Of a stretch of 64,000 nucleotides of DNA, positions 36,742 to 56,670 are shown piece after piece. Under the pieces are notes generated by a model. That model was not told the origin of the DNA. It saw only the letters and a program-made list of their open reading frames with translations, and made no database searches. This DNA is from Candidatus Aminicenantota bacterium (GTDB lineage Bacteria > Acidobacteriota > Aminicenantia > Aminicenantales > Aminicenantaceae): contig CP070825.1 of NCBI GenBank assembly GCA_020344415.1, positions 2,831,512-2,895,511 of the forward strand, in the 5' to 3' direction. Position numbers and translations under genes: made by a program. The first letter of the stretch is position 1, and the number at the start of each line of letters is the position of its first letter.

Positions 36742-37896
36742 ATGCAAAAGGAAAAACTGCTCATGATTCCCGGGCCGAGTCCTGTTCATCCTCGCATCTT
36801 AAACAGCCTCTCGCTGCCTACCGTTTCTCATGTCAGCCCTGAGCTTGTCGCTGAATTAAAGGAGGCATTGACCAACTTAAAGAAAATTGTCTTCTGTGAG
36901 GAAGGCGAGCCATTCATTGTAGCTGGAGCAGGGACATTGGCTATGGAAATGGCCCTTCTCAACACCGTGGGAAAAGGAGAAAATCTTTTAGTCCTTTCCC
37001 AAGGTTTCTTCGGAGAAAGAATGACTCAGATTGCTCGAAGCTTCGATTTGAGCTTTGATCTTATTGAAAGTGAATGGGGAAAAGCTGTTCTACCCGAGGA
37101 ACTGGAAAAAAAGATTTCTGAGAAAGAGTATAGAGCTGTAGTCTCTACTCATGTGGATACATGTACAGGAGCGTGTGCCCCTGTTATGGAATACGCAGAA
37201 AAATTAAAGAGAAGGGACATTCTCTTTATTGTAGATGGCGTATGTGCTACTGGAGGGATAGAAGAGAGAATGGACGATTGGGGGATTGACGTTATCCTTA
37301 CTGCGGCTCAAAAGTGTTTTGGTGCACCACCGGGTTTATCGGTTTTGGTCCTCTCAGAGAGAGCTATGGAAAAAAGAAGAGAGATGAAAGCTATTCCAGC
37401 CTATTATTCTGACCTCCTCAACTGGCTTCCGATTATGAAGGACCCATCAAAATATTTTTCCACTCCCTGTGTTAATGAGATTAGAGCTTTTTATGAGGGT
37501 ACAAAGATAGTCCTTGAGGAGGGAATGGAGAAAAGATTTCTGCGCCATGCTCGTACAGCTGAGGCTATCCGAAAAGCTCTACTAGCGCTGGGCTTTTCTC
37601 TTTTTACTCAGGAGCCATTTTTAGCGGATACGCTTTCTGTGGTTCAATATCCGGAGGAGATCGAAGATAAATCTTTTAGAAGCAAATTCGCAGAAAACGG
37701 AGTTGTGGTGGCCGGAGGGCTGGCAGAGATGGCAGGAAAGGTTTTCCGGATAGGGCATATGGGCAATCTGTCTATTTCTCAGGTTCTGTTCGCGATCGAT
37801 GCCCTGGAAATCACTCTCTCTTCATTGGGTTATAGTTTCGAACGAAGCACTGGGCTTAAAGTGGCCCGGGAAATTTTAGAGGAGACGGTGAGTTGA
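36742..37896 (+). CDS. Alanine-glyoxylate / serine-pyruvate type aminotransferase
   Basis: A 384-residue class V PLP aminotransferase. MIPGPSPVHPRILNSL and the AGAGTLAMEMAL loop are typical of the AGXT/SgaA group. The PLP lysine is Lys191 in LTAAQKCFGAPPGLS, with the aspartate in FIVDGVCATGG. Substrate (serine, alanine or an aminophosphonate) cannot be set from sequence. The gene's stop overlaps the start of the next gene as TTGA, so it is coupled to the DUF362 ferredoxin-like protein. Confidence 0.88.
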   Translation: MQKEKLLMIPGPSPVHPRILNSLSLPTVSHVSPELVAELKEALTNLKKIVFCEEGEPFIVAGAGTLAMEMALLNTVGKGENLLVLSQGFFGERMTQIARSFDLSFDLIESEWGKAVLPEELEKKISEKEYRAVVSTHVDTCTGACAPVMEYAEKLKRRDILFIVDGVCATGGIEERMDDWGIDVILTAAQKCFGAPPGLSVLVLSERAMEKRREMKAIPAYYSDLLNWLPIMKDPSKYFSTPCVNEIRAFYEGTKIVLEEGMEKRFLRHARTAEAIRKALLALGFSLFTQEPFLADTLSVVQYPEEIEDKSFRSKFAENGVVVAGGLAEMAGKVFRIGHMGNLSISQVLFAIDALEITLSSLGYSFERSTGLKVAREILEETVS

Positions 37897-38981
37897 AAGT
37901 TCAGAATAAGTTACCGAGCAAAGTTTATTTTATCCCTGCAAAAAGGGAAGATGGACATAAAGCCGTAGCAAAAAAAGCGGAGAAGATTTTTCTTCAGGCA
38001 GGGTTCTTAGACCAAATCGAAAAAAATTCTTATGTGGCTCTGAAGATTCACTTCGGTGAGAAAGGCAATACCGGATTTATAAAGCCGCAATGGCTTAGGG
38101 ATATTATAAGCCATATCGAGAACAAAACATCTCATATGTTTCTAACAGACACAAATACCCTTTATGTAAGCCAGAGGTCAAATTCTGTTGATCATCTTCG
38201 CTTGGCACAGGAACATGGTTTTACTCAAGATGCTGTCGGGATACCTGTTGTCATTGCCGATGGCCTTATTGGACGGGATGGTGATGAGATCCAGATCGAT
38301 TTACCACGAGTTAAGGCAGCCAAAATTGCCAGTGCAATCCTTGATTCAGATCTGCTCCTCTGTCTAAGCCATTTCACCGGCCATATGATGAGTGGTTTTG
38401 GAGCTGCCATAAAAAATCTGGGTATGGGATGTGCATCTCGAGCCGGGAAGCTTGAACAGCATTCTGATGTTCATCCGTGGGTAGATGCTAAGAAGTGTAC
38501 GGGTTGCGAGGTCTGTGTGGAATACTGCCCTGAGCAGGCCATTACTGTGGAAGATGAAAAAGCAGCGATTGAAGATGAAAAATGCATCGGATGTGGAGAG
38601 TGTCTTGTTGTGTGTACTGTTAATGCTGTTAAATTCAGTTGGGATTCCGATGCTTTGCGATGTCAAGAGAAGATGAGCGAATATGCATACAGCGTCTTCA
38701 AGCATTTTAAAGGCAAAATTAGCTTTATTAATTTCTTGCTCAAGATTACTAAAGACTGTGACTGCATAGGGCAGGATGAGTCAACTATAGTTGAGGATAT
38801 CGGGATTTTGGGTTCTTCTGATCCTATAGCTTTAGATAAAGCCTCTGTGGATTTGGTGAACAGCAGAAGCGGGAAAGATATATTACGAGTTGGATATGAT
38901 GTGGATTGGTCTATGCAGCTCAGACATGGAGTTAAGATCGGTTTGGGCAGCATGGATTATGAATTGATTGAGCTAGATTAG
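37893..38981 (+). CDS. DUF362 protein with two 4Fe-4S ferredoxin clusters
   Basis: A 362-residue protein. The N-terminal DUF362 domain (VALKIHFGEKGNTGFIKP, LLLCLSHFTGHMMSGFGAA, IKNLGMG) is followed by a ferredoxin insert with two clusters, CTGCEVCVEYCPEQAI and CIGCGECLVVCTVNAV (residues about 200-245), then the rest of DUF362. The start is TTG 37893, overlapping the aminotransferase stop. The family is of unknown biochemical role, probably redox. Translational coupling to the aminotransferase suggests a joint pathway. Confidence 0.87.
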   Translation: MKVQNKLPSKVYFIPAKREDGHKAVAKKAEKIFLQAGFLDQIEKNSYVALKIHFGEKGNTGFIKPQWLRDIISHIENKTSHMFLTDTNTLYVSQRSNSVDHLRLAQEHGFTQDAVGIPVVIADGLIGRDGDEIQIDLPRVKAAKIASAILDSDLLLCLSHFTGHMMSGFGAAIKNLGMGCASRAGKLEQHSDVHPWVDAKKCTGCEVCVEYCPEQAITVEDEKAAIEDEKCIGCGECLVVCTVNAVKFSWDSDALRCQEKMSEYAYSVFKHFKGKISFINFLLKITKDCDCIGQDESTIVEDIGILGSSDPIALDKASVDLVNSRSGKDILRVGYDVDWSMQLRHGVKIGLGSMDYELIELD

Positions 38982-39236: not shown

Positions 39237-40889
39237 GTGAAGTTAAAAAATATAGTGAGAGTGATATTAGGCCTGGCAGTTTTTGGATCTTTTTTAAGTT
39301 TATTATTAATAGGTTTTATTTTCGGGTTTAGGTATGTCCCCCTTGTATTTGTTACTTTTCACCTTATTTCCTATTTATATGTACTTTTGTTCTTCTTTCT
39401 GTTCATTCTGGTATCAAAATTATTTTGGTTCCTATCCCCGTCGAACATAAAAAATCTATACACAGATAATAAAAGCCAGTTTAGAGGCATCATTCTAATA
39501 TGTTTTTTATTTTTCTCTCTTTGTCTCTGGATAATGAATCATTATGTCTATGACTATAGATTCAATCTTGTAAGCATTTTAAGCAATACAGGTATTTCTG
39601 TTTTTATGGTCTCTTTATCCTTGATTCTACTGAAGCCAAGCGCGGCAAAATATGTATTTTTATTTTCTTCGAGTTTAATTTTTATGGCTTCCTTATTTCT
39701 TTCACTTGTAAGTGTTGATCAACAGGATATGGCTTCCTCAGCGCAGAAGACGGTGCTCAGGTCTTTGCCGTATGCCAGATGGGTGTCAGCAGAGAAATCC
39801 ATGGAAAAGACAGGAGTTACTAAGTATGTCCCACAGAAATCTTATCAAGGGATAAACATTTATAATTCTCGCCATTCCCCACATTCTTATCTTATGGATA
39901 TGTTTGGGAATGTGCTCCATACCTGGACTGTGAAAATGAGAGGTAGAGAGAATGATATTTGGCATCATGTTAGGATGTGCAGAAATGGAGACTTATTAGG
40001 AATTAGCGAAAAAGATTTGTTCGTAAGATTGGATTGGAACTCCAGTATTAAGTGGAGTAAAAAATTGCCTTTTCACCATGACATCGATATAAACGAAGAT
40101 AGCGATATTTTTTCTTTGATCCATAAGGATGAGATTCTGTTTTCTTTAGGCTTTCCGATAGTTATTAAAAATGATTATCTTGTAATTTTATCTCCCTCCG
40201 GAGAAATAAAGAAGGAGATATCTTTATTTAAAATCTTGAAGAATGAGGTTCCACTTTTTCGATTGAAGAAGATACTCTTGTGGCTGGTTGATCCGAAAGA
40301 CTTTTTAACGAGAATTGAAAAGAATTTAGCGCCTCCGAGGGAAATTGCTGGCATTACTGCTGATATTCTTCATGCAAATACCGTTAAAGTGATAGATAAA
40401 GATATCAGCGATAAGTTCAAAAAAAGTAATGTCTTGATCTGCTTAAGAAACCTGGATTCACTCGCAGTATTAGATATTCAGGAAGAAAAGCTTATATGGA
40501 GCTGGGGAAAAAATCACCTTGAAGAACCTCATCACTCGACATTGCTGGAAAGCGGGAACATTTTGGTCTTTGATAATGGAACACGACGAGGCTATTCGCG
40601 TGTAATCGAATTGAATCCTTTTATTGGAGAGATTGTCTGGGAATATACAGCCAGTCCTCCTGAGTCATTTTTTTCTGATTGGGCAGGGGCGAGTCAAAGG
40701 TTGCCCAACGGGAATACGCTTATAACAGAAACTGCTAAAGGTCGAGTATTTGAGATAACAAAGGATAAAGAGATTGTGTGGGAATTCTATAATCCTGTGA
40801 TGAGAGGAAAAAGGAGAGAGGTTATTTACCGCATGATGAGAATTGCCGATACAGAGAATTACCCTATTCTGGATAAACTTAAGGAATAA
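39237..40889 (+). CDS. Membrane-anchored arylsulfotransferase (ASST)-like protein
   Basis: A 550-residue protein. About five membrane segments occupy residues 8-160. A beta-propeller domain resembling arylsulfotransferase follows: YQGINIYNSRHSPHSYLMD, NVLHTWTVK, DIWHHVRMCRNGDLLGI, DILHANTVKVID, LIWSWGKNHLEEPHHSTLL and SQRLPNGNTLITETAKGRVFEI. The histidines in WHH, LHAN and PHHS parallel the ASST active-site region. The multipass N-terminus is unlike classical periplasmic AssT. A true sulfotransferase or a propeller-only role are both possible. The start is GTG 39237. The 3' end overlaps the convergent GT2 gene by 11 bases. Confidence 0.75.
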   Translation: MKLKNIVRVILGLAVFGSFLSLLLIGFIFGFRYVPLVFVTFHLISYLYVLLFFFLFILVSKLFWFLSPSNIKNLYTDNKSQFRGIILICFLFFSLCLWIMNHYVYDYRFNLVSILSNTGISVFMVSLSLILLKPSAAKYVFLFSSSLIFMASLFLSLVSVDQQDMASSAQKTVLRSLPYARWVSAEKSMEKTGVTKYVPQKSYQGINIYNSRHSPHSYLMDMFGNVLHTWTVKMRGRENDIWHHVRMCRNGDLLGISEKDLFVRLDWNSSIKWSKKLPFHHDIDINEDSDIFSLIHKDEILFSLGFPIVIKNDYLVILSPSGEIKKEISLFKILKNEVPLFRLKKILLWLVDPKDFLTRIEKNLAPPREIAGITADILHANTVKVIDKDISDKFKKSNVLICLRNLDSLAVLDIQEEKLIWSWGKNHLEEPHHSTLLESGNILVFDNGTRRGYSRVIELNPFIGEIVWEYTASPPESFFSDWAGASQRLPNGNTLITETAKGRVFEITKDKEIVWEFYNPVMRGKRREVIYRMMRIADTENYPILDKLKE

Positions 40890-41895
40890 ATGCTTCCCGC
40901 CATTTCGATAAGATTTTTTTGACCATGAATATACCTGTGGCTGAGATTAGAGTGATAGAACTGTAGAATAAATAAAACCAGTGGAGAAAAACAGAGAGGA
41001 TTGCGAATTTCCATCCTTTTTTCAGTAAATAAAATCGATAAAGTTTTCGATTCATGTAAAAAAGAGCGCCTGCAAACATGATGGATATGAACACACAGGG
41101 GACGTACCACCATATTACGATGAGGCTAATCGGTGTCAAACAAGCCAGGATTCCGCTTATTCTATCCGAGAGTTTGAAGTTTAGATCGTATGGAAGTCCC
41201 TTTTCTAAGGAAAGTCTGGCCCAGGGCACGGCGCGTTGGAAGATATCTGTTTTTAAAAGATTCAAAAAATTCCATTTCTTTAGATGCTTAACTTGCAATT
41301 CTTTCACGAGTCTTATCTCGATGGCTTGTTCTTTTAATTTATACCCCATTTCAACATCTTCAATAGCTGGGGATGAGTATCTCTCAGGAAATCCGCCAGC
41401 TTCTAGAAAAACTTTTTTCCTGATAGCTCCACAGCCAGCCCAGAAAGTGCTGGCCTCAGTCTTTGCGTTTTGATGCACAAAATGATGAAAAAGATTTTTG
41501 TATTGAGAGAAGAAATCCTTACAATGAGGGTTGTCGTCGTAAGACCCGAAGACAGCTCCAATGTCAGGGTTTTCTTCCAAAAATTTCACAATACGGGAGA
41601 TAGAATCAGGCGAAATCTCTACGTCTGCATCTAAATAAAAGAGAATCGATCCTCTGCCTTTATCAGCACCTTTATTTCGGGCTTTCCCCGGGGCTCCTTT
41701 TATTCGCATTGAAATCAAAATGTCAGCATATTTCCTGGCAGTTTCCGCAGTACCATCGGTTGAATGATCATCCACAACGATAAGTTCATAATAAGGATAA
41801 TCGGATTTTTTTATCGCGGGAAGTGAACGAGCCAGGTGATCTTCAGCATTGTAAGCAGGAACGATGATGGAAACAGAGACCTGATTGGCGCACAT
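40879..41895 (-). CDS. Family 2 glycosyltransferase, membrane-associated
   Basis: A 338-residue GT-A glycosyltransferase. It has SVSIIVPAYNAEDHLARSL, LIVVDDHSTDGTAE, KARNKGADKG, the metal-binding DxD (LFYLDADVEIS) and a later ED motif (PAIEDVEMGYKL). The last 110 residues carry two to three hydrophobic segments (ISGILACLTPISLIVIWWYV; FYLLKKGWKFAILSVFLHWFYLFY), so it sits on the inner membrane, like dolichyl-phosphate-mannose-type or polysaccharide GT2 enzymes. It is the only minus-strand gene between two plus-strand members of the locus. Confidence 0.85.
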   Translation of the reverse strand: MCANQVSVSIIVPAYNAEDHLARSLPAIKKSDYPYYELIVVDDHSTDGTAETARKYADILISMRIKGAPGKARNKGADKGRGSILFYLDADVEISPDSISRIVKFLEENPDIGAVFGSYDDNPHCKDFFSQYKNLFHHFVHQNAKTEASTFWAGCGAIRKKVFLEAGGFPERYSSPAIEDVEMGYKLKEQAIEIRLVKELQVKHLKKWNFLNLLKTDIFQRAVPWARLSLEKGLPYDLNFKLSDRISGILACLTPISLIVIWWYVPCVFISIMFAGALFYMNRKLYRFYLLKKGWKFAILSVFLHWFYLFYSSITLISATGIFMVKKILSKWREAFIP

Positions 41896-41993
41896 AAGGC
41901 TGAAGTTTTTTGAATATTTTAGCGAGTTTATAGCACAGAAAAATTTATTATCAAAAAAGCTCTTAACTTACAAGTCTTATTTTTCGCCTCTGA

Positions 41994-42022
41994 TTGATTT
42001 TAAACGCTAAATTCTTTATAGT
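41994..42022 (+). promoter_or_regulatory. Probable promoter of the flavoprotein-kinase pair
   Basis: TTGATT at 41994-41999, 17-bp spacer, TATAGT at 42017-42022. The transcript would have a leader of about 150 bases to 42180, in which I see no conserved riboswitch-like structure. Confidence 0.4.
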
Positions 42023-42179
42023 GAACCTGTTTTAATGAAACCATTATCTTATTTGGGGATTGAATCTTCCAAAAAACTCATGAGCATTATAGAAGAGAGG
42101 TAAACTTGGAGGATCTCGGTCAAAAAATCCTACGGCTCCAATCACCCTGCTCGAAATAACTAAAAGTTTGGATAAAAAC

Positions 42180-43592
42180 ATGACTATCTCTTCTGATAAA
42201 GTTGTCATCATAGGAGCAGGTCCGGCTGGAGTTGCATGTTCTTACGCGTTAGGTAAAGAAGGACAGTCTTCCCTTGTAATTGAGAAAAATACAAACATCG
42301 GCGGGCTCTGTCAGACCATAGATTTTAATGGCTATCTTTTTGATATCGGCGGTCATCGGTTTTTATCTAAGTCCAAAATAATCAATGATCTATGGAATAG
42401 AATCATGAAGAGTGATCTGCTTAGAGTCGAAAGATTATCGAGGATATTCTACAGAAAAAAATTTTTTGACTATCCATTATCCTTTTTCAATACATTCTGG
42501 AACCTGGGTGCAGTTGAGAGTGCCCAGTCTATCGCAAGCTATTTGTATGCCAGGATAGCAAGAGACGCCGATGATAACACATTCGAGGGATGGATCATCA
42601 ACCGCTTCGGAAAGAGATTGTACAGAATATTTTTTAAATCCTATACTGAGAAAATATGGGCTATGTCATGTAACAATATTTCTGCAGATTGGGCGGCACA
42701 GCGGATCAAAGGTCTCTCTTTAAGAGTAGCAATCAAAACAGCTTTATTGAGAAACAAAAAGACCACGCCCACGACATTAGCTCAGAGTTTTTTGTACCCG
42801 AGGAGAGGTCCAGGAGAATTCTTCAATAATCTTGCGCAAGTTGCAGCTAAACACGGGGCTAGATTCGAACGAGAAAAAATAGTGACAGGAATCAAGCACG
42901 ATAGTGGGAGGATCCTTTCCGTTGAAGTTAAACATACTAATTGTCACGGAAAAGAAGAAATACCGGTGGAATATCTTTTCTCGAGCATACCATTGCCCTG
43001 TTTTATAAAATCTTTGATTCCTCCGCCTCCGATAGATGTTATAGATGCTGCGTCCCGATTGAATTTTAGAAGCTACATTGCTGTGAATGTAGTCATTAAC
43101 AAAGAAAATATTTTCCCGGATCAATGGATTTATATACACTCACCTGAAGTCAGATTGGGGCGGATCCAGAATTATAAAAATTGGAGTCCTGCTATGGTCG
43201 TTGACCCGAAAAAGACGACTCTTGGATTAGAATATTTCTGCACAGAAGGAGATAACTTCTGGAAGATGAGCGATTTTAACCTTATTGATTACGCAGTCGG
43301 AGAGCTGGAAAGAACAGGGATTGTGTCCCGCAAGCATCTTATAACTGGATTTGTTGTTCGGAGGTCAGAAGTTTATCCAGTGTATTGTCTTGATTACCAT
43401 AAGCATTTGCAGGTTGTTCGCAGCTATCTCGATCAGTTTTCAAATTTTCAGCCAATAGGAAGGGCTGGTCTTTTTCGTTATTGCAATTCCGATTATGCCA
43501 TGCTAACAGGAATTTTTGCGGCAAAAAACTTTTTAGAGAAAATATCTTATGACATTTGGAAATTGGGTGCAGAACAGGAATACTTTGAATGA
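42180..43592 (+). CDS. FAD-dependent UDP-galactopyranose-mutase-like / amine-oxidase-fold protein
   Basis: About 470 residues. It has the Rossmann FAD motif VVIIGAGPAGVACSYALG, the acidic end of the second strand (VIEKNTNIGGLCQTIDFNG), FDIGGHRFLSKS, and the mutase-like FKSYTEKIWAMSCNNISADWAAQRIKG. The GHR and TEKIWG-type motifs are shared with UDP-galactopyranose mutases and protoporphyrinogen-oxidase-like proteins found in glycan loci. ATG 42180 is chosen over TTG 42168 because the conserved strand begins soon after; neither has a good ribosome-binding site. Followed 48 bases later by the kinase-like gene. Confidence 0.8.
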   Translation: MTISSDKVVIIGAGPAGVACSYALGKEGQSSLVIEKNTNIGGLCQTIDFNGYLFDIGGHRFLSKSKIINDLWNRIMKSDLLRVERLSRIFYRKKFFDYPLSFFNTFWNLGAVESAQSIASYLYARIARDADDNTFEGWIINRFGKRLYRIFFKSYTEKIWAMSCNNISADWAAQRIKGLSLRVAIKTALLRNKKTTPTTLAQSFLYPRRGPGEFFNNLAQVAAKHGARFEREKIVTGIKHDSGRILSVEVKHTNCHGKEEIPVEYLFSSIPLPCFIKSLIPPPPIDVIDAASRLNFRSYIAVNVVINKENIFPDQWIYIHSPEVRLGRIQNYKNWSPAMVVDPKKTTLGLEYFCTEGDNFWKMSDFNLIDYAVGELERTGIVSRKHLITGFVVRRSEVYPVYCLDYHKHLQVVRSYLDQFSNFQPIGRAGLFRYCNSDYAMLTGIFAAKNFLEKISYDIWKLGAEQEYFE

Positions 43593-43640
43593 CAAAATAG
43601 CGATGTCGATTTTATTGATTGTTATTAAGAGCATGTTTAA

Positions 43641-44639
43641 ATGAAAGAGTACTTCAATTTTTATGATTTTACGATAGGGGTATCTAGCGCATCAGCAGGT
43701 CTATTGGAAGAGATACGACGTGACTTTTCCTATTTTCGGGTCCCTGTTGGAAAAAACGATATGCAGATTAAAATAAACATTTCCCCTCCTCCATATTCAG
43801 AGCTTCCATCAGTGCCGGCCACTCTCATCACTCCTCGTAATGTTTGTTTCAGGAATAATAAGACTACCTATGTTGACTATTTTGGAAAGGGCATGGCGAT
43901 TTATGATCGGCAAAATAGAGATTGTGTGATCCACGGAATTGACCCTGATCTTGTTCATGAAATAGTGTATCATTTTATATTGTCAACAGTAGGGCAGTAT
44001 TTGGACAGCAAAAGAATCCATCGGATTCATGCCCTGGGGGTATGCTACTATCAGCGGAATATTCTTTTGGTCCTTCCATCGGGTGGAGGAAAGAGTACGC
44101 TGGTGCTGAAACTGCTCCACTGTCCAGGATTCAAGCTTCTGAGCGATGATACGCCGCTAATAGACCGGCATGGTAACATTCTGCCTTTTCCCCTAAGACT
44201 CGGAGTCCAACCCGGTCAAACGCAGGGAATACCGGAAAAAAGTCTCCGTACGGTAAAACGGATGGAATTTGAACCAAAAACTTTGATTGACCTCGAATTC
44301 TTTAAGGACCGCTTAGCTGAGTCAGGCCCGCCGGATTTTCTTTTAATCGGTGAACGAAACCTCGGCGAAGTCTCTGAGATTACCCCCTTGGCAAAGAGGA
44401 AGGTTCTTAAAACTCTTATCAGGTATATGGTTGTTGGACTTGGCATATATCAGGGATTAGAATTTTTGCTTGAGAGGGGAGTCTGGGATATTGCCCTCAA
44501 AACAAGGTTAATCCTATCACGACTGTATAATAGTATGCGATTGCTCTCTCGTTCACAATCTTACAGATTTGTATTAGGTCGAAACACAGAAATAAATTAT
44601 ATGACTCTTCACGACTTTATTCAAAAAAAAGGCAAATAA
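43641..44639 (+). CDS. HprK-like P-loop kinase family protein
   Basis: A 332-residue protein. Residues about 1-120 are beta-rich and unrecognised. A P-loop follows (LVLPSGGGKSTLVLKL, about 149-164), then LLSDDTPLIDRHGNILPFPL, equivalent to the HPr-kinase Walker B/HxDD region. True HprK has an N-terminal DRTGG-like domain and the K/M-loop and binds HPr; these are not seen. The match is rather to HprK-related kinases found beside lasso-peptide, exosortase and glycan clusters. Target unknown: it might phosphorylate a protein, a lipid-linked sugar or a peptide. Confidence 0.7.
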   Translation: MKEYFNFYDFTIGVSSASAGLLEEIRRDFSYFRVPVGKNDMQIKINISPPPYSELPSVPATLITPRNVCFRNNKTTYVDYFGKGMAIYDRQNRDCVIHGIDPDLVHEIVYHFILSTVGQYLDSKRIHRIHALGVCYYQRNILLVLPSGGGKSTLVLKLLHCPGFKLLSDDTPLIDRHGNILPFPLRLGVQPGQTQGIPEKSLRTVKRMEFEPKTLIDLEFFKDRLAESGPPDFLLIGERNLGEVSEITPLAKRKVLKTLIRYMVVGLGIYQGLEFLLERGVWDIALKTRLILSRLYNSMRLLSRSQSYRFVLGRNTEINYMTLHDFIQKKGK

Positions 44640-44719
44640 TCAGCGACACCTTCTCCTTCCTTTGAGATCTTCAAATTTTACAGAAACTTCAAAGATTATT
44701 ATTATGTTATAGGGAACAG

Positions 44720-45961
44720 TTAATGGAGCAGTCTTTTCACTAACCAGAGAGTGAAGCCTGTATGAAGCAAGGCAGCAGAAATCCTTGAGATCACTGCACC
44801 GTACACGCCAATAAGGGGAAGTAGTACCAGATTCAAAATCAATCCCGCCAGCGTACTTATGATCAGGGCATTGAGTGTCTCCTTTTCCTTGTGTAATGCC
44901 TGCAAAACGTATACTAGAAACAATCCCGTGAAATTAAGGGGAAATAGCAGACTTAAAGGACGCAGCAGGGGGCTTATGGATTCAGAAATTTGTCCATACA
45001 TCAAGTGGGTCAATGGCTCGGCAAGAATGTAAACAGCTGTCATCATCAAGAAACCTATAACAATTAATATGGTTGTTATTTGAACAAGGCTACGACGGTT
45101 GCTGGATGTCAGACGATCTGCTGCCAGGCGTTGATAGAATACCGATCCCAGGGAGCCGGGAATAAAGAAGGAGGCGAAAATAATACGTGATGCGAGGTTA
45201 TAATGTCCGACTGTTTCATAATCTGTAAACAGCTTCAGCAACAGAGTATCTAGCTGAAATTGAAGGATTGTCAGCAGAGTGAGGAGCAGGAAAGGGAATC
45301 CTTTCCTGAGCAACGACAGGTTCAAAGATATACTGGGACGTCCTATGCATATTGTCGTAACAAACAAGGCAGCAGTGACCAGGCACACAGAACGGAATAG
45401 GTAAACAGCCAATAGGGTGTTAAGGGAGGGTAATACGAACATGGCCCAGAGGAAAACAGCTATAAACAGAGTCTGGACCGATACTCCTATGGATACGTTG
45501 TAAATAATTTTCCGAAGCGCGATAAAAAGACTGCCGAAAGTGAAATAGTAATGATCAAAAAGTGTAAAAAGAGCGGTTATGAAAACAACAAACCCCACTC
45601 TCCCTCCGATGAATAAAGCGATGCTTCCCAGGCAAAGAAGATATAAAGGGCCGCTGACCAGGCGTATTCCCAGGAGATCAGAAAAATGTATCCCCGCTTT
45701 TTCCTGTTCAGCAGCAATCTGTCTAACCGTTACTGGATCGACGCTCAAGGTGATAATCACAGAGAGCATCTCTGCTATAGAGAGGGCAAAGAAGAAGATG
45801 CCGATGTCCATCTCGGAAACGCGGCGGGATAAGACAACAAGGATAACAATGCTGGCCAGCCTGTAATAAGCCTGGGCTCCCAGAAACAACACCAAGTCTC
45901 TACCGAGGCGGCTCCGTTTAAATATTGAGATTGGCTTGATTAGAGAATTAATGTCAATCAC
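44720..45961 (-). CDS. Wzx/MATE-type oligosaccharide flippase
   Basis: A 413-residue integral membrane protein with about 12 hydrophobic segments and the polysaccharide-biosynthesis-export layout: LVLFLGAQAYYRLASIVILVVLSRRVSEMDIG at the start (positions 24-55), FFFALSIAEMLSVIITLSVDPVTVRQIA, and a mid-protein GHYNLASRIIFASFFIPGS. It probably flips an undecaprenyl-linked glycan. G+C rises here compared with the two genes to the left. It is the last gene of a minus-strand trio with the GT4 and nucleotidyltransferase genes. Confidence 0.85.
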   Translation of the reverse strand: MIDINSLIKPISIFKRSRLGRDLVLFLGAQAYYRLASIVILVVLSRRVSEMDIGIFFFALSIAEMLSVIITLSVDPVTVRQIAAEQEKAGIHFSDLLGIRLVSGPLYLLCLGSIALFIGGRVGFVVFITALFTLFDHYYFTFGSLFIALRKIIYNVSIGVSVQTLFIAVFLWAMFVLPSLNTLLAVYLFRSVCLVTAALFVTTICIGRPSISLNLSLLRKGFPFLLLTLLTILQFQLDTLLLKLFTDYETVGHYNLASRIIFASFFIPGSLGSVFYQRLAADRLTSSNRRSLVQITTILIVIGFLMMTAVYILAEPLTHLMYGQISESISPLLRPLSLLFPLNFTGLFLVYVLQALHKEKETLNALIISTLAGLILNLVLLPLIGVYGAVISRISAALLHTGFTLWLVKRLLH

Positions 45962-46140
45962 AGCATTTCTCTTTAAGAACAGCCCATGTATGTTGTTTTT
46001 TTATACACGGCAAAACAGGCGAAGTCTCGCAGCGCTCCTTAGAGGCGCTGTGTTAAAACAATTCATCTCCTGTCTACAGCAATAAAAGATAAACGGTATT
46101 TTATATATTCATCCAACCAGAAAAATAATTACGTATTACT

Positions 46141-48216
46141 TTACAAATAAATTGAAAAAGCATCATACGTGGCACATCGCGTTTTTCCAAGCAGGGGATC
46201 GGGTCGAATGATCCGTACCTGATATTTACCGGCTACCAAAGGTACGGATACCTCTGTAACATCCTTTGGCTGTTCTCCCAAGAATGATCGAAGCGATTCT
46301 AACTTTCCTTTAATAGTTTCTCCTGGATTTAAAACAATAGCCCATTCTGCAGCCAGGGTGCTTCTTGCTACAATTTTGCAGTTCTCGAAAGAGCCATCCC
46401 ATCGGTAAAATAAAAAGCCTGCTTTGCGGGCCTTCAACACATCATTCATATTGACATAACGAGTAAACAAGCATAACACTTCTTCTCCAGGGCTTTTTAC
46501 CTTTTTTATGTATTTTAGGGATTTTTTTGGGGATTCGTCATCTTGAACACAAAGAATCCAGGAAAGTGAATTCCTTAAATTCAATTTTTGCTTATCAATT
46601 AGGTTTTTTTTCTGCGCTGTATATTCAAGAGCTCGCGTTTTCTCAAGGCAATCAGCGATTTTCAAGCCTACGCGCTTCAACAAGTGATGCTTTTCACAGT
46701 ATTCTCTTCCGCGCATGCCTTTTTCCCTGGCTTCAGATTTATTTTCAAAAACGTGGCGGAGGATAGCGCGCAAATGTTTTACATTAGGAGCATAAAACCG
46801 ATCTCCTGCATAAGCTGGGCTGTCAGGGTGTTTGGAAACATATGAGGCACCTGTTGAGACAAGATACCCATGTTGATCATTCAAAAAATCAACAACTCCG
46901 CTGTAGTTCAACCCGATTACCGGAGTTCCGCAAGCCATGGCCTCCAAATGTGTTAAGCCGAAGCCTTCGTTGCTGGGCAGGACATATGCATCGGCTCGCG
47001 TATAAAAATCACGAAGGTTGGATCGGCTTATATATTCAGTAGAAATAAATAGTGGGGCGCTTTGTTTGGCATAGCGATTTTCCCATCCTGCAATATCCAA
47101 AGCAACATTTTGCGCTGTTGTAAAAAACTCAGGACGAATGAGAAGAAACAGGGCAACATCTTCATGTTCTCTAAACTCTTCTAAGAATGCTCTGACGATA
47201 TGCTTGATGTTTTTTCGTTCCACCTGTGATGAGACTGTCAAAAAGTTGAATTTTCTGCCTCCAGGTAAGCTCTGACTCTCATTGCATGGTGCATAGAAAT
47301 CAAGGTCTACTCCGTGAGGGACTATATAGATGGGGCAGTGAACTCCAGAGGATTTGAAAGCAGAGGAAACAAATTTTGTGGGGGCAATAATCGAGGTCAT
47401 CATGTTGCAGCGTTCAACTAATCCAGGCAGGATGCTTTTCGTTTCACACACAAACAGTCCAATATTGGGTACATCCGATGCTATCCTTGAATAGAGCGGA
47501 GGCGCAACGTGAAAGCGTAGATCAGGTGCAGCTGTTGTATTGAAAAGCCTAAAAAAATCGGTTTTCCGAGAGCTCTTATCGTCATAGGCATAAGAGCGAA
47601 ACATCAAGTTAAAGCGTTTTTGCGAGATAAGTTCTTCAGCAGTCATTATTCCGTTCAAAGGTAGACCGGACCTTAGATTGTGCCAGTCAAACACCATTTC
47701 AACATTGAGGCTTCCTGGATTAAATTCATGCTTGTGATAGAAAAGCTCACCCCATCGCATTAGACGGCCTGTCCCACGGCCTAGGATAGAAACTGGAGAT
47801 TTTGCGTTATCTTCAGAAAGATAAAGCTCCTGCTCAGGATGGACGAAGAATGAAAAATTTTTTTCATAAACATTTCTCCCGACTTTAAGTCCGGTTGTCC
47901 CAGGTCCAATACGCATGCATAAGATTATGCTTTCCGATTTGTTCGATGGAGCAGCTAATACTCGTATTATACTCTTGTTTCCTTCCCCATTTATTATGAT
48001 TTCGCCGGTTTTTTTATTGTGCACTGACCCCATAACATGGCCATTTTTAGTGACAAGGTCAAACAATTTCCCGTTTACCTGATTATCTGTATATTCAAAG
48101 CAGAAATAGCTGTCCCGGTCGGGTGTAAAGACAACAGCAGCCTCATCAACCTGATGGCTGAAAAAGAGGGCTGAAGATATGCTCTTTGAATACCGAAAAT
48201 CAATAAAGGTCGTCAT
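46141..48216 (-). CDS. Multidomain family 4 glycosyltransferase with extra N- and C-terminal domains
   Basis: A 691-residue protein. Residues 1-150 are a beta-rich domain I do not recognise. A GT-B domain spans about 160-560 with IYIVPHGVDLDFY, FLTVSSQVERKNI and the donor-site motif NEGFGLTHLEAMACGTPVI (catalytic EGFGLTxLE). Residues about 565-691 look like a GT2 fold (LSWILCVQDDESPKKSLKYI; ARSTLAAEWAIVLNPGETI), but the metal-binding DxD is replaced by NPGE, so it is probably catalytically dead. The layout suggests GT4 catalysis plus a pseudo-GT binding or scaffold module. Confidence 0.8.
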   Translation of the reverse strand: MTTFIDFRYSKSISSALFFSHQVDEAAVVFTPDRDSYFCFEYTDNQVNGKLFDLVTKNGHVMGSVHNKKTGEIIINGEGNKSIIRVLAAPSNKSESIILCMRIGPGTTGLKVGRNVYEKNFSFFVHPEQELYLSEDNAKSPVSILGRGTGRLMRWGELFYHKHEFNPGSLNVEMVFDWHNLRSGLPLNGIMTAEELISQKRFNLMFRSYAYDDKSSRKTDFFRLFNTTAAPDLRFHVAPPLYSRIASDVPNIGLFVCETKSILPGLVERCNMMTSIIAPTKFVSSAFKSSGVHCPIYIVPHGVDLDFYAPCNESQSLPGGRKFNFLTVSSQVERKNIKHIVRAFLEEFREHEDVALFLLIRPEFFTTAQNVALDIAGWENRYAKQSAPLFISTEYISRSNLRDFYTRADAYVLPSNEGFGLTHLEAMACGTPVIGLNYSGVVDFLNDQHGYLVSTGASYVSKHPDSPAYAGDRFYAPNVKHLRAILRHVFENKSEAREKGMRGREYCEKHHLLKRVGLKIADCLEKTRALEYTAQKKNLIDKQKLNLRNSLSWILCVQDDESPKKSLKYIKKVKSPGEEVLCLFTRYVNMNDVLKARKAGFLFYRWDGSFENCKIVARSTLAAEWAIVLNPGETIKGKLESLRSFLGEQPKDVTEVSVPLVAGKYQVRIIRPDPLLGKTRCATYDAFSIYL

Positions 48217-48256
48217 TTTTTTTCTTTCGGGTAGTTACAAACCAGCTGTGTCCTGT

Positions 48257-49873
48257 TCAATGATTTGATTCCAGCATAAATCGGACCTGTTCAAAGGCAT
48301 CTTGCCCCATATTTTTCGTAAGCCTGTCGACATTGAGATTCCCATATTGCTTTAGAAAGGCTATCGGATAATCAGGATCCTCTTCGGCTTTGATTTCACT
48401 GTAATGGAGAACAGCCTCTTCCGCGTTGGAAGGCGCCCATCCTGTTCGTTTAAATACAAACAATCGGGGATAATGAAGGGTTACAGCATCATATAACCCG
48501 ACCTTTAGATGCTCAATATATATTTGATGTTTATACATCGAAAACGAGAGGATTTCCCGTTTTATCTCATCTTCTTTTGAGAAAAAATTTGATGAAGAAG
48601 CGAGAGATTCCTGGTACAAAGCTGGATTGCCGTATAACACAGATCCGTGACGAAGTGCGAAATTATTTACGAAAGGCCAGATTTCCAGGTGGCAATCTAA
48701 CATCCGTTTTGAATAAACTAAAGGTGCCTTGGCTGGAAAATGTTCATTAAACCAGGAATCGTCATAGACTCGAAATATAATATGCAAGTTTCTCAAAGCT
48801 TTCCCGATTTGACAAAGTGTCAGATTATCCTTAAGTACAACGACCAGAACGTACCCCCGAGGCGATCCATTGGAGGAAAGAAAGATGGCTTCAAGATCAT
48901 GTTCAAGCAGTTGCGAGATACTGTCAGCTATTTGTCGGGTCCGCCTCAAAACTTCGGCATAATTACGGGGAGACATCCTTTTTTTGCCAGGCGAATCTTT
49001 CATTAGCGCCGAAGGAAAGCAAATATCCCTAACTTTTAACGCCTGATCTATCTGTTGAAAGGCTAGGGCAGTTATCTCATAACTCGGGTTAGTAATGTGA
49101 CCGCTTTGGAACCTGTTTTCCGCTGTCTTGATCAAGTCATCTACAGCCTCGAAGGGCCCATGTTCACTATTCCACAAGACTATGCGATCTCGTTGACGCG
49201 GTATTTGAAGATACTCAGGATATAAATGGAATAGTGAGAAGCAAAATCCTTTGTAAAGCTCTCTTCGAGCTATGATGGAGAAAATAGAGGAAACCGGCTC
49301 CTCTTTCAGTGCTGCAGTAATGAGTTTCAGGTAACTCATGAGTGAAAGGCGAAGTCGGTCCCGTTCGGCTTGTCTTGTGGATAGGTCCCATCCTTTCTGC
49401 CTCACATCATGACCATATGCGCAACGCCAGTGTTTAACTTCATCAACCGGCTCCATCCCGCCGCCTAATCGCTGCCATTCTTCAAATTCTTCACTTGTGA
49501 ATACAGAGACATCCTGAATCGGAAGCCATTGAACAAGCCGTGCCCTCATTCTTCTAAGGGCCGTGTGGAACCCTTTGAGGTCCTTGGTTTCACATATAAC
49601 GATGAGGTCAAAATCGCTTAGTCCAGGATATCGCTCACCGCTTACTTGACTGTGAGTCAAATAGATCGCGATAATGGCAGGAATTTTACTCAAATATCGT
49701 ATGATAAGATACTCAAAAAAATCATACAGCCAGCCGTGGAGGCGATGCAGGAACGCATTGCGGTTGCCCTTTACCATTACATTCCGGATCCAGCAGACTG
49801 TATCGGTTAGTAATTGGCTGAATATTCTGGCATTTGGAAATATGAGGGAATGAGAGTTTGCCGTTTTCGACAT
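48257..49873 (-). CDS. Pol-beta-fold nucleotidyltransferase-like protein, possibly with a second degenerate domain
   Basis: A 538-residue protein. Around residues 65-150 there is a nucleotidyltransferase motif: ERYPGLSDFDLIVICETKDL with the paired acids DFD, and a third candidate acid in WLPIQDVSVFT. A helical middle (about 170-320) follows. Residues about 330-430 show the same order of elements (LEAIFLSSNGSPRGYVLVVV, then KALRNLHIIFRVYDDSWF) without the acids, as if a duplicated inactive copy. Sugar-activating nucleotidyltransferases have a different fold, so a minimal-nucleotidyltransferase (AMP/UMP-transfer to protein or small molecule) role is more likely. Confidence 0.6.
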   Translation of the reverse strand: MSKTANSHSLIFPNARIFSQLLTDTVCWIRNVMVKGNRNAFLHRLHGWLYDFFEYLIIRYLSKIPAIIAIYLTHSQVSGERYPGLSDFDLIVICETKDLKGFHTALRRMRARLVQWLPIQDVSVFTSEEFEEWQRLGGGMEPVDEVKHWRCAYGHDVRQKGWDLSTRQAERDRLRLSLMSYLKLITAALKEEPVSSIFSIIARRELYKGFCFSLFHLYPEYLQIPRQRDRIVLWNSEHGPFEAVDDLIKTAENRFQSGHITNPSYEITALAFQQIDQALKVRDICFPSALMKDSPGKKRMSPRNYAEVLRRTRQIADSISQLLEHDLEAIFLSSNGSPRGYVLVVVLKDNLTLCQIGKALRNLHIIFRVYDDSWFNEHFPAKAPLVYSKRMLDCHLEIWPFVNNFALRHGSVLYGNPALYQESLASSSNFFSKEDEIKREILSFSMYKHQIYIEHLKVGLYDAVTLHYPRLFVFKRTGWAPSNAEEAVLHYSEIKAEEDPDYPIAFLKQYGNLNVDRLTKNMGQDAFEQVRFMLESNH

Positions 49874-49963: not shown

Positions 49964-50076
49964 TCACATATATTATAAGGAAGATTTGTGCGGAGTAAAA
50001 GAAATTTCATCCAACAGTCATAATATATCCCAATTTTCTTGTAGACGGACTGGGAGCATATCAGGTATAAGGGCTA

Positions 50077-50151
50077 TCGGGGCGAGGGGATTCGAACCCC
50101 TGACCCCAGCGTCCCGAACGCTGTGCGCTAACCAGACTGCGCCACGCCCCG
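50077..50151 (-). tRNA. tRNA-Pro(CGG)
   Basis: A full cloverleaf of 75 bases: acceptor CGGGGCG/CGCCCCG, D-arm GCGC-GCGC, anticodon stem CAGCG/CGCTG with loop TTCGGGA (anticodon CGG), a 5-base variable loop and T-arm AGGGG-TTCGAAT-CCCCT, discriminator A. CCA is not encoded. A TATAAT at 50171-50166 may be its -10. Its 3' end faces the glycan locus. Confidence 0.95.
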
Positions 50152-50333
50152 ATCGTATTGTCTAGATTATACCCTTTAATTGTGAGAGATAAAAGTCTAG
50201 CCCTGAATTGCCGGAAGAACATGATGGCGGATCCCTTCTGAACCTCATATTTTCAATGAAGGTCGGTTTCGAAAGGTGCGGTCCATATCGGATTGAGGAA
50301 GGCCTCCTCTATAAGCAGGTTCAGAGGAATAAT

Positions 50334-51605: not shown

Positions 51606-54035
<2,430 letters not shown>

Positions 54036-54042
54036 TAATAAG

Positions 54043-54228
54043 GGGACGTTCCCCAAAGTACTACCCTTTAATCATAAATGGGGACAGTTCTATTTTTTTA
54101 AATTTAAAATTTGTCCTGACAGAGTTATTTTTATTCGTCAGAGAAAAATAGAGCCGTCCCCCTTCTTTTAGTGATGCAGGAATGGAATTTTTGAGTTTGA
54201 AAAGCATCGTGCTTTGGGGAACCTCCCC
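54043..54228. repeat. Nested palindrome between gyrB and gyrA
   Basis: Outer arms ggggacgttccccaaag (54043-54059) and ctttggggaacctcccc (54212-54228) enclose an inner pair tggggacagttctatttttt (from 54079) and aaaaatagagccgtccccc (to 54162). The whole 186-bp spacer is thus one folded structure with a second inside. It belongs to the GGGGACA repeat group. Confidence 0.75.
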
Positions 54229-54249
54229 TCTTTTTAAAAAGGAGAATTG

Positions 54250-56670
54250 ATGAGTACTAAGCCTACTGTGGTTAGCCTCGAAGAGGAGATGAAGCGGTCC
54301 TACCTCGACTACGCGATGAGCGTGATCATAGGCCGGGCCATTCCTGATATTAAAGATGGACTGAAACCAGTTCACCGCAGGACTCTTTACGCAATGTATG
54401 AAGCCGGCAATACTTGGAACAGGCCCTATAAAAAATCTGCCCGGATTGTAGGAGATGTCATAGGTAAGTTTCATCCTCATGGAGATGTCGCTGTCTACGA
54501 TACCCTTGTTCGAATGGCTCAAGACTTCAGTCTGCGTTATCCCTTGGTAGACGGTCAGGGCAATTTTGGCTCCGTTGATGGGGACCCTCCTGCTGCCATG
54601 AGATACACTGAAGTCAGGATGAAAAAAATTGTCCAGGACCTTACGGCAGATATTGAAAAAGATACAGTCAATTTCGTCCCTAACTATGATGGAAGCCTCC
54701 AAATGCCTGAAGTTTTTCCTGCAAAAATACCCAACCTTTTGATCAACGGAGGATCAGGCATTGCCGTTGGCATGGCTACAAACATCCCTCCCCATAATCT
54801 TGGGGAGGTTATAGATGGTATTATCCACCTTATTCAGAACCCCAAGGCAACTATAGAAGAAATCATTAAGTTTGTCCCTGGCCCAGATTTTCCAACGGGT
54901 GGATATATCTTTGGCTTAGAAGGAATAAAAGATGCCTACAAGACAGGCAGGGGCATCATTTTATTAAGAGCGAGAGCTATGATTGAGAAAGGGAGGAAGA
55001 ACGAAAGAGCCCGGATTGTCATCACCGAAATTCCTTATCAGGTCAATAAAGCTCGACTCCTGGAAAACATTGCAGACCTTGTGAATAGCAAAAAACTTGA
55101 AGGTATTGCCGATATAAGAGATGAATCAGACAGGGAAGGCATGAGGATCGTCATCGAAATAAGAAAGGGAGAGTATCCTGAGATTATCTTGAACAACCTC
55201 TACAAACATACAGCTCTTCAGTCCACTTTCGGTATTATCATGCTGGCAATCGTCGAGAAACAGCCAAAGGTACTCAACCTTATTGACGTGATACGCTACT
55301 TCATCTCTCATCGCCAGGATGTTGTTCGCCGCCGCACACGTTTTGAATTAAAAAAGGCAGAATTAAGGGCTCACATTCTGGAAGGATTGAATATTGCCCT
55401 GGATCATCTGGACGAGATCATAAGCCTTATCCGTTCTTCTCGAACAGTAGAACAGGCAAGGAAAGGGCTTATCACCAATTTTCACCTGACCAAGATTCAA
55501 GCTCAGGCCATTCTGGATTTGCAGCTTCAGAGATTAACTCGATTGGAGAGAGAAAAAACTCAGAATGAATACAAAGAGTTGAAGAGAATAATCATAAGGT
55601 TGAAGAAGATATTAGGCAGTGAAAAGCTTATTCTGGATATCATCGTGGACGAACTAAAGAAAGTAAAAGAAGACTATCAGGATGAGAGGAGGACAGAGAT
55701 AAAAAAGGAGACCATATCAGAATTAAAGCCAGAAGATTTGATAAAAGAAGAAGATGTCGCAGTCACCTACACATCATCCGACTATGTCAAGAGGACTTCC
55801 CTGAGCTACTACCATTTCCAGATCCGTGGAGGGAAGGGAAAAAGAGGGATCAGCATGAAGGCTGAGGATGTTGTACAAAACCTCTACATTTGCTCTACGC
55901 ACAGCTACCTTCTCTTTTTCACCAGTAAAGGACGCCTATACTGGCTGAAAGCTCATGAGATACCTGATGTGGGAGTTTCAGGTAAGGGGAAATCTATCAG
56001 GAATCTTATTGAGCTCGCCCCAGGGGAAAAAGTCCATTCTGTCGTTTCCGTGATGGATTTTTCTGAAGATTTCTATGTTGTCATGCTAGCCTCAGATGGG
56101 AAGATAAAGAAGTCAAGATTGAGTGATTTTAAAAACATTCGCAAAGGCGGAATTATTGCTATAAGCCTCAGCCGTAAAGCTGAATTACTGACGGCCAAAT
56201 TGACGAATGGGAAACAGGATATTTTGATCGGTACAAAGCTGGGAAAAGCAATCAAGTTTAAAGAGTCTGAGGTGAGACCCATGGGACGGCAGGCAGCCGG
56301 TGTGAAGGCTATCTCCTTGGCTCGTAAAGATGAAATTATCGGAATGATTGTAGTGGGGAAAGACGATGAGTATGTATTTACTGCAAGCGAGAAAGGCTGC
56401 GGAAAAAAGACAGATATCAACCTCTATCCAAAGCGTCGAAGGGGAGGAAAGGGCGTTCTTAATCTCAGGATTAGCCCTAAAATCGGCAAGGCTATAGGGA
56501 TGGTAGGAATTTCTAAGGAAGAAATGCTTCTGATCACAGAACTGGGTAAGATTATTCGAATAAAAACAGAGCTGCTCAGGTCTATTGGGAGAGCAACCCA
56601 AGGGGTAAGAATAATTAACTTGGAAAAAGGCGATCGAGTCGTTTCTATTGCTAAAGTAAGAGAAAGATAA
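54250..56670 (+). CDS. gyrA: DNA gyrase subunit A
   Basis: The roughly 806-residue breakage-reunion subunit. The N-terminal WHD/tower domain has the catalytic tyrosine in [10 protein letters not shown] (Tyr119 from ATG 54250). The coiled-coil gate follows ([21 protein letters not shown]), then a C-terminal six-bladed beta-pinwheel with a GyrA-box-like (Q)RGGKG motif ([12 protein letters not shown]). ATG 54250 follows AAGGAG; a TTG at 54247 is rejected. In the quinolone-determining region [11 protein letters not shown], the residue equivalent to E. coli Ser83 is valine, while the Asp87 equivalent is kept. Confidence 0.93.

What the first reader, a model, noticed from the sequence alone, without database searches (positions are those of the whole stretch)
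39237..49873. Glycan-like locus with an HprK-like kinase and a Pol-beta-type nucleotidyltransferase
Two glycosyltransferases, a Wzx-type flippase and a UGM-like flavoprotein suggest export of a galactofuranose-type or similar glycan. They sit with an HprK-like P-loop protein, a nucleotidyltransferase-fold protein and an arylsulfotransferase-like membrane protein, none of which is a standard part. HprK-like proteins and nucleotidyltransferases co-occur in peptide-modification clusters, so phosphoryl or nucleotidyl tailoring of a glycan or carrier is conceivable. This is the best candidate in the window for an undescribed system.
Basis: inference. Interest (0 to 1): 0.62.

Follow-up and report, generated by a model that had tools for sequence, protein, structure and literature searches.

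The report
Kinase–nucleotidyltransferase pair in glycan loci
This bacterial gene cluster for exporting a sugar polymer carries an unusual kinase and an unusual nucleotidyltransferase that travel together in at least three bacterial phyla, which suggests that some bacteria decorate a sugar chain with phosphate in a way so far seen only on small peptides.

Summary
In detail: seven intact genes at 39237-49873 (ASST, GT2, UGM-like flavoenzyme, HprK-like kinase, Wzx, GT4, nucleotidyltransferase). The kinase belongs to a distinct clade (100/100 support) found in only about 1-2.5% of sampled genomes. Twelve of the 15 kinase-bearing genomes also carry the same nucleotidyltransferase family, and no strong nucleotidyltransferase hit occurred in any of 620 kinase-free genomes. 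The two genes are often side by side, mostly in glycosyltransferase loci with a Wzx or ABC exporter, in the window's phylum, Omnitrophota and Actinomycetota. The nucleotidyltransferase is fused to a GT4 in one genome and to a GT2 in another. The kinase has the HprK/PEPCK fold with its key motifs kept. The nucleotidyltransferase has a Pol-beta-type domain but no named family. No peptide-maturation part was found in the cluster, so a glycan or lipid-linked sugar is the likelier target. The best mechanism, inferred from the studied lasso-peptide pair PsmK/PsmN, is phosphorylation of a hydroxyl followed by addition of a sugar or nucleotide to that phosphate. The galactofuranose idea is not supported, and the ASST is not part of the conserved set. 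Function is untested.

The parts
43641..44639 (+). HprK/PEPCK-fold kinase (P0002, 332 aa). Motifs: H130 (RIHALG), Walker A GGGKST 148-153, LLSDD 166-170, MEF 208-210
48257..49873 (-). Nucleotidyltransferase of an unnamed Pol-beta-type family (P0001, 538 aa). N-terminal catalytic domain (GLSDFDL at 84-90), divergent C-terminal half
40879..41895 (-). GT2 glycosyltransferase. Homologues sit beside or near the kinase in most relatives
46141..48216 (-). GT4 glycosyltransferase (691 aa) directly beside the nucleotidyltransferase. GT4 is also beside or fused to it in relatives
42168..43592 (+). PRK07208-type FAD flavoenzyme (UGM superfamily, not a UGM equivalog). Also present in 5 relatives' loci
44720..45961 (-). 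Wzx-type flippase. Replaced by a Wzm/Wzt-like ABC exporter in several relatives
39237..40889 (+). ASST-like membrane protein. Probably a neighbour, not part of the conserved module
   Evidence: PF14269; absent from relatives
50076..50152 (-). tRNA-Pro(CGG) at the right edge of the cluster

Best explanation
This is a surface-glycan assembly and export locus that contains a conserved two-enzyme tailoring module. Steps shown by computation: the kinase has the HprK/PEPCK fold with its ATP-binding and acidic motifs kept, the partner has a Pol-beta-type nucleotidyltransferase domain, and the two co-occur with GT2/GT4 enzymes and a Wzx or ABC exporter. Steps inferred: the kinase phosphorylates a hydroxyl on the lipid-linked glycan or its sugar acceptor; the nucleotidyltransferase-fold enzyme, working with the neighbouring GT4, then adds a nucleotide or sugar to that phosphate; the tailored glycan is flipped or pumped out.
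For: Kinase clade at 100/100 support, separate from HprK_rel_A and other HprK-like kinases. It was found in 6/285 genomes of the Omnitrophota sample, 5/199 of the class of the Solirubrobacteraceae genome and 3/376 of the window's phylum. Strong nucleotidyltransferase hits occur only in kinase carriers (Fisher 5.6e-8, 7.9e-8 and 9e-5). With profile-founder genomes excluded, 3 of 3 new hits in the Omnitrophota sample fall in kinase carriers, P 2.6e-6. G149 and G759 also carry it, on contigs other than the kinase's. Immediate adjacency in L019, L041 and L042, and a Wzm-Wzt-kinase-GT4-nucleotidyltransferase order in L040. GT4 fusion in L063 and GT2 fusion in L089. Precedent: PsmK phosphorylates a serine and PsmN is needed for hexose addition to it (PMC9266682).
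Against: No substrate or product is known. The first glycine/serine motif and the third acidic residue are not kept in all nucleotidyltransferase members, so nucleotidyl transfer itself may be lost or altered. The family shows no detectable homology to the lasso-type nucleotidyltransferase PF14907 beyond the SD-x-D motif, so the PsmN analogy is functional, not by descent. In some genomes the two genes lie on different contigs, and in L017 the kinase stands outside any glycan locus. Several profile rows were taken from kinase neighbourhoods, so part of the co-occurrence statistic is not independent.
Confidence: 0.42

Rival explanations
1. The pair makes an activated sugar: the kinase forms a sugar phosphate and the nucleotidyltransferase converts it to an NDP-sugar, which the GT2/GT4 then use.
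For: Kinase plus nucleotidyltransferase is the usual logic for NDP-sugar supply (general knowledge), and both sit beside glycosyltransferases.
Against: Pol-beta-type enzymes usually transfer nucleotides to hydroxyls, and NDP-sugar pyrophosphorylases have another fold (general knowledge). Fusion to whole glycosyltransferases suits a transfer or tailoring step better.
Confidence: 0.18
2. The kinase and nucleotidyltransferase are regulators that modify a glycosyltransferase or the exporter (Ser phosphorylation, nucleotidylation) to control chain length or export.
For: HPr kinase itself is a protein kinase, and Pol-beta enzymes such as GlnE modify proteins (general knowledge). Both genes lie beside glycosyltransferases.
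Against: The exporter is not a constant target: Wzx in some loci and ABC in others.
Confidence: 0.15
3. It is a peptide-modification (RiPP) cluster of the paeninodin or LPP kind hidden in a glycan locus, with an unrecognised precursor.
For: HprK-like kinase plus NTP transferase are typical of lasso and LPP clusters, and the LPP authors note that such clusters can be embedded in glycosyltransferase-rich loci (PMC13381572). L035 holds a member of this kinase clade beside PqqD, radical SAM proteins and a signal-peptidase-like protein.
Against: The nearest PqqD/RRE gene is about 75 kb away, outside the window. No lasso cyclase, leader peptidase or convincing precursor in or between the cluster genes. 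In L019, L041 and L042 there is no room for a spare gene between kinase and nucleotidyltransferase.
Confidence: 0.12
4. Chance neighbourhood: unrelated genes gathered in a glycan island.
For: Glycan loci are mosaics (general knowledge); the UGM-like and ASST genes vary between relatives.
Against: Kinase and nucleotidyltransferase share the same rare genome distribution in three groups.
Confidence: 0.05

Closest known systems
Lasso-peptide tailoring pair PsmK/PsmN (pseudomycoidin) and PadeK (paeninodin)
   Same: HprK-like kinase paired with a nucleotidyltransferase-annotated partner; the kinase phosphorylates a hydroxyl and the partner is needed for hexose on that phosphate
   Different: Peptide substrate with RRE, leader peptidase and cyclase; here none of these was found, and the nucleotidyltransferase shows no detectable homology to a PF14907 member
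LPP family of phosphorylated linear peptides (LppK/LppN)
   Same: HprK-like kinase plus NTP transferase plus exporter, sometimes in glycosyltransferase-rich surroundings
   Different: Needs RRE, signal-peptidase-like LppS and a precursor, none seen in the window's cluster. L035 is the nearest to this type
HprK-related kinase A (TIGR04352) with PqqD and PF14907
   Same: Homologous kinase core (hhalign probability 92%) and the same kinase plus nucleotidyltransferase pairing in L082
   Different: Distinct clade, 19-23 bits against a cut-off of 200; partner nucleotidyltransferase not homologous at a detectable level
WbdD-type O-antigen chain-capping kinases (from general knowledge)
   Same: Kinase acting on a growing exported glycan, in ABC-exporter loci
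   Different: WbdD has another kinase fold and a methyltransferase domain; no nucleotidyltransferase partner. Not compared with tools here

Membership tests
HPr kinase/PEPCK superfamily | HprK/PEPCK fold | tested here: met
   AF2 model pLDDT 82; Foldseek PEPCK E 3e-10
HPr kinase/PEPCK superfamily | Walker A, acidic pair after it, upstream histidine | tested here: met
   GGGKST 148-153, DD 169-170, H130; K151, D170 and H130 invariant among the five aligned members
HPr(Ser) kinase proper (PF07475/TIGR00679) | Family score above cut-off | tested here: not met
   No PF07475 hit for the window protein; L018 at 17 and 21.5 bits against cut-offs of 33 and 240. The genome has a separate true HprK
HprK-related kinase A/B | Score above 200 bits | tested here: not met
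   23 and 24 bits; separate from the HprK_rel_A member in the tree
Pol-beta-type nucleotidyltransferase | Nucleotidyltransferase fold and D-x-D motif | tested here: met
   By sequence: 1ylq E 6e-6; PF01909 above cut-off in L037; S86, D87, D89 invariant. The structure model failed
Pol-beta-type nucleotidyltransferase | GS motif and third acidic residue | tested here: inconclusive
   Variable across members
PF14907 lasso-type nucleotidyltransferase | Detectable homology | tested here: not met
   hhalign probability 0.5%; no Pfam hit
Lasso/LPP RiPP cluster | RRE/PqqD, leader peptidase, precursor peptide in the cluster | tested here: not met
   Nearest PqqD about 75 kb away; no such genes or convincing precursor among or between the cluster genes
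UDP-galactopyranose mutase | TIGR00031 above cut-off | tested here: not met
   46.7 bits against 303.75; PF03275 20.9 against 26.3
Wzx/ABC-exported glycan locus | Glycosyltransferases plus flippase or ABC-2 exporter | tested here: met
   PF00535, PF00534, PF01943
Wzx/Wzy-dependent glycan | Wzy polymerase and initiating sugar-phosphate transferase | not tested
   No annotated candidate among the seven genes; the rest of the genome was not searched

The most novel reading that the evidence does not exclude
A kinase and a Pol-beta-fold enzyme build a phosphate-linked cap, branch or anchor on an exported glycan, a glycan counterpart of the phosphate-glycosylated lasso peptides, with the nucleotidyltransferase fold acting as a sugar- or nucleotide-phosphate transferase together with a GT4.
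Probability: 0.3. Interest if true: 0.75.

Novelty: new variant of a known kind. Interest (0 to 1): 0.57.

Why it matters
In the papers found here, HprK-like kinases paired with nucleotidyltransferases are studied as peptide-tailoring enzymes, and what the nucleotidyltransferase does chemically is still open (PMC9266682, PMC13381572). A separate kinase clade with a different nucleotidyltransferase family in glycan loci would suggest that the pairing arose more than once. It would give a second setting in which to find the chemistry, and would point to an undescribed phosphate decoration of bacterial surface glycans in little-studied phyla.

Tried and rejected
Galactofuranose glycan: rejected, the flavoenzyme is not a UGM equivalog. 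ASST as a part: rejected, not seen in relatives. Defence system: no PADLOC match. Plasmid spread: no relatives in the plasmid collection. Composition island: GC 38-44% through the cluster, no anomaly. Precursor peptide: only unconvincing short frames in the gaps. AF2 of the nucleotidyltransferase failed (two rows, pLDDT 37), so no fold search was made with it. A viral-contig scan with the nucleotidyltransferase alignment could not run. Literature searches for such kinases in O-antigen, flippase or polysaccharide contexts found nothing relevant in the held papers. The original pseudomycoidin paper is not held, so PsmK/PsmN is cited from a review.

Full report
Observation. The window holds seven intact genes at the stated places. 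Pfam and NCBIfam identify the ASST, GT2, flavoenzyme, Wzx and GT4. The kinase and the nucleotidyltransferase match no Pfam family, and the nucleotidyltransferase no NCBIfam family either. The flavoenzyme is a PRK07208-type protein (575 bits), not a UDP-galactopyranose mutase (46.7 bits against 303.75).

Kinase. An AF2 model from four family members (mean pLDDT 82) matches PEP carboxykinase in the PDB at E 3e-10. The ATP-binding loop GGGKST, the acidic pair and the upstream histidine are kept. Sequence similarity to solved HPr kinases is weak (E 0.29). Similarity to HprK-related kinase A is clear over the core (hhalign 92%). A tree of 33 kinases places all 16 copies of this family in one clade with 100/100 support, apart from HprK_rel_A and other HprK-like kinases of the phylum. 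The genome has its own true HPr kinase elsewhere.

Nucleotidyltransferase. The family profile matches the minimal nucleotidyltransferase AF0614 (1ylq, E 6e-6), and one relative exceeds the PF01909 cut-off. The SD-x-D motif is invariant in the aligned rows. The first GS motif and the third acidic residue vary, so I do not claim that every member transfers nucleotides. The C-terminal half is divergent. A structure model failed.

Co-occurrence. The kinase clade was found in 6 of 285 genomes in the phylum sample centred on an Omnitrophota genome, in 5 of 199 of the class of a Solirubrobacteraceae genome, and in 3 of 376 of the window's own phylum, with none in the five other sampled genomes of its own family. 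Strong nucleotidyltransferase hits (E below 1e-10 with the profile) appeared in 4 Omnitrophota and 4 actinobacterial genomes, all kinase carriers; in the own-phylum sample of 149 the single-protein search found only the window's genome and G026, both kinase carriers. Only three weak hits (E 3e-5 to 7e-5) fell in kinase-free genomes. Fisher values are 5.6e-8, 7.9e-8 and 9e-5. Several profile rows came from kinase neighbourhoods, so I also counted only hits that were not rows: three of three in the Omnitrophota sample fall in kinase carriers, P 2.6e-6, or 2.6e-5 if the two weak hits there are counted against it. A follow-up search found the nucleotidyltransferase in G149 and G759 as well, on other contigs. 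In total 12 of 15 kinase genomes carry it. Of the remaining three, G178 has a divergent candidate right beside the kinase and G545 a different, unverified candidate directly after it. G214 has only a weak PF14907-like one.

Neighbourhood. Kinase and nucleotidyltransferase are adjacent in L019, L041 and L042. L040 reads Wzm-Wzt-kinase-GT4-nucleotidyltransferase-GT4. A GT2 lies beside or near the kinase in the window, L018, L019, L035, L037, L038, L039, L043, L044 and L081. PRK07208-like proteins occur in L018, L037, L038, L042 and L081. Exporters are Wzx/MATE type in the window, L039 and L042, and Wzm/Wzt-like ABC in L019, L037, L038, L040 and L041 (several read by eye from the sequence, not scored). 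A GT4 is next to the nucleotidyltransferase in the window, L040, L059, L060 and L088. The nucleotidyltransferase is fused to a GT4 in L063, in a genome without a detected kinase of this clade, and to a GT2 in L089. L017 is an exception: its kinase stands outside any glycan locus.

Mechanism. The studied precedent is the lasso-peptide pair: PsmK phosphorylates the terminal serine and PsmN is needed for one or two hexoses on it. The authors of the review leave open whether PsmN is a glycosyltransferase or a true nucleotidyltransferase (PMC9266682). LPP clusters use the same kinase plus NTP transferase logic, and LppN had no detectable effect in the heterologous host (PMC13381572). In the window's cluster the peptide parts are missing, so I propose the same two-step logic on a glycan or lipid-linked sugar. 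That step is inference.

Limits. The window's phylum is not named by the tools. That it differs from Omnitrophota is inferred from the two samples sharing no genome handles and having different genome sizes. All relatives come from genome assemblies, several fragmented. No biochemical evidence is known to me for any member.

Noticed in passing
window 51651-56670; L039 2-4621; L088 2433-7318: gyrB-gyrA lies close to the glycan or nucleotidyltransferase genes in the window, in G230 and in G149. This could be a shared insertion spot or a conserved neighbourhood.
   Followed up: no
L035 1880-10055: A kinase of this clade sits beside radical SAM proteins, PqqD and a signal-peptidase-like protein with a weak NTP_transf_5 stretch: a possible peptide-modification cluster using the same kinase clade.
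   Followed up: partly
L082 8478-11165: Small leader-like protein, PqqD-like small protein (read by eye), HprK-related kinase A and PF14907 nucleotidyltransferase in a row in a genome of the window's phylum.
   Followed up: partly
L063 5866-13312: Three nucleotidyltransferase-like genes, one fused to GT4, in a glycan locus with an ABC exporter and no kinase of this clade detected in that genome.
   Followed up: partly
L081 9551-10648 and L037 9288-10313: Kinases from the window's phylum and from Omnitrophota group together with 100/100 support, which suggests transfer between phyla.
   Followed up: no
window 36742-38981: PhnW/BhcA-like aminotransferase followed by a protein with a 4Fe-4S ferredoxin domain, just left of the cluster and probably unrelated.
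   Followed up: no
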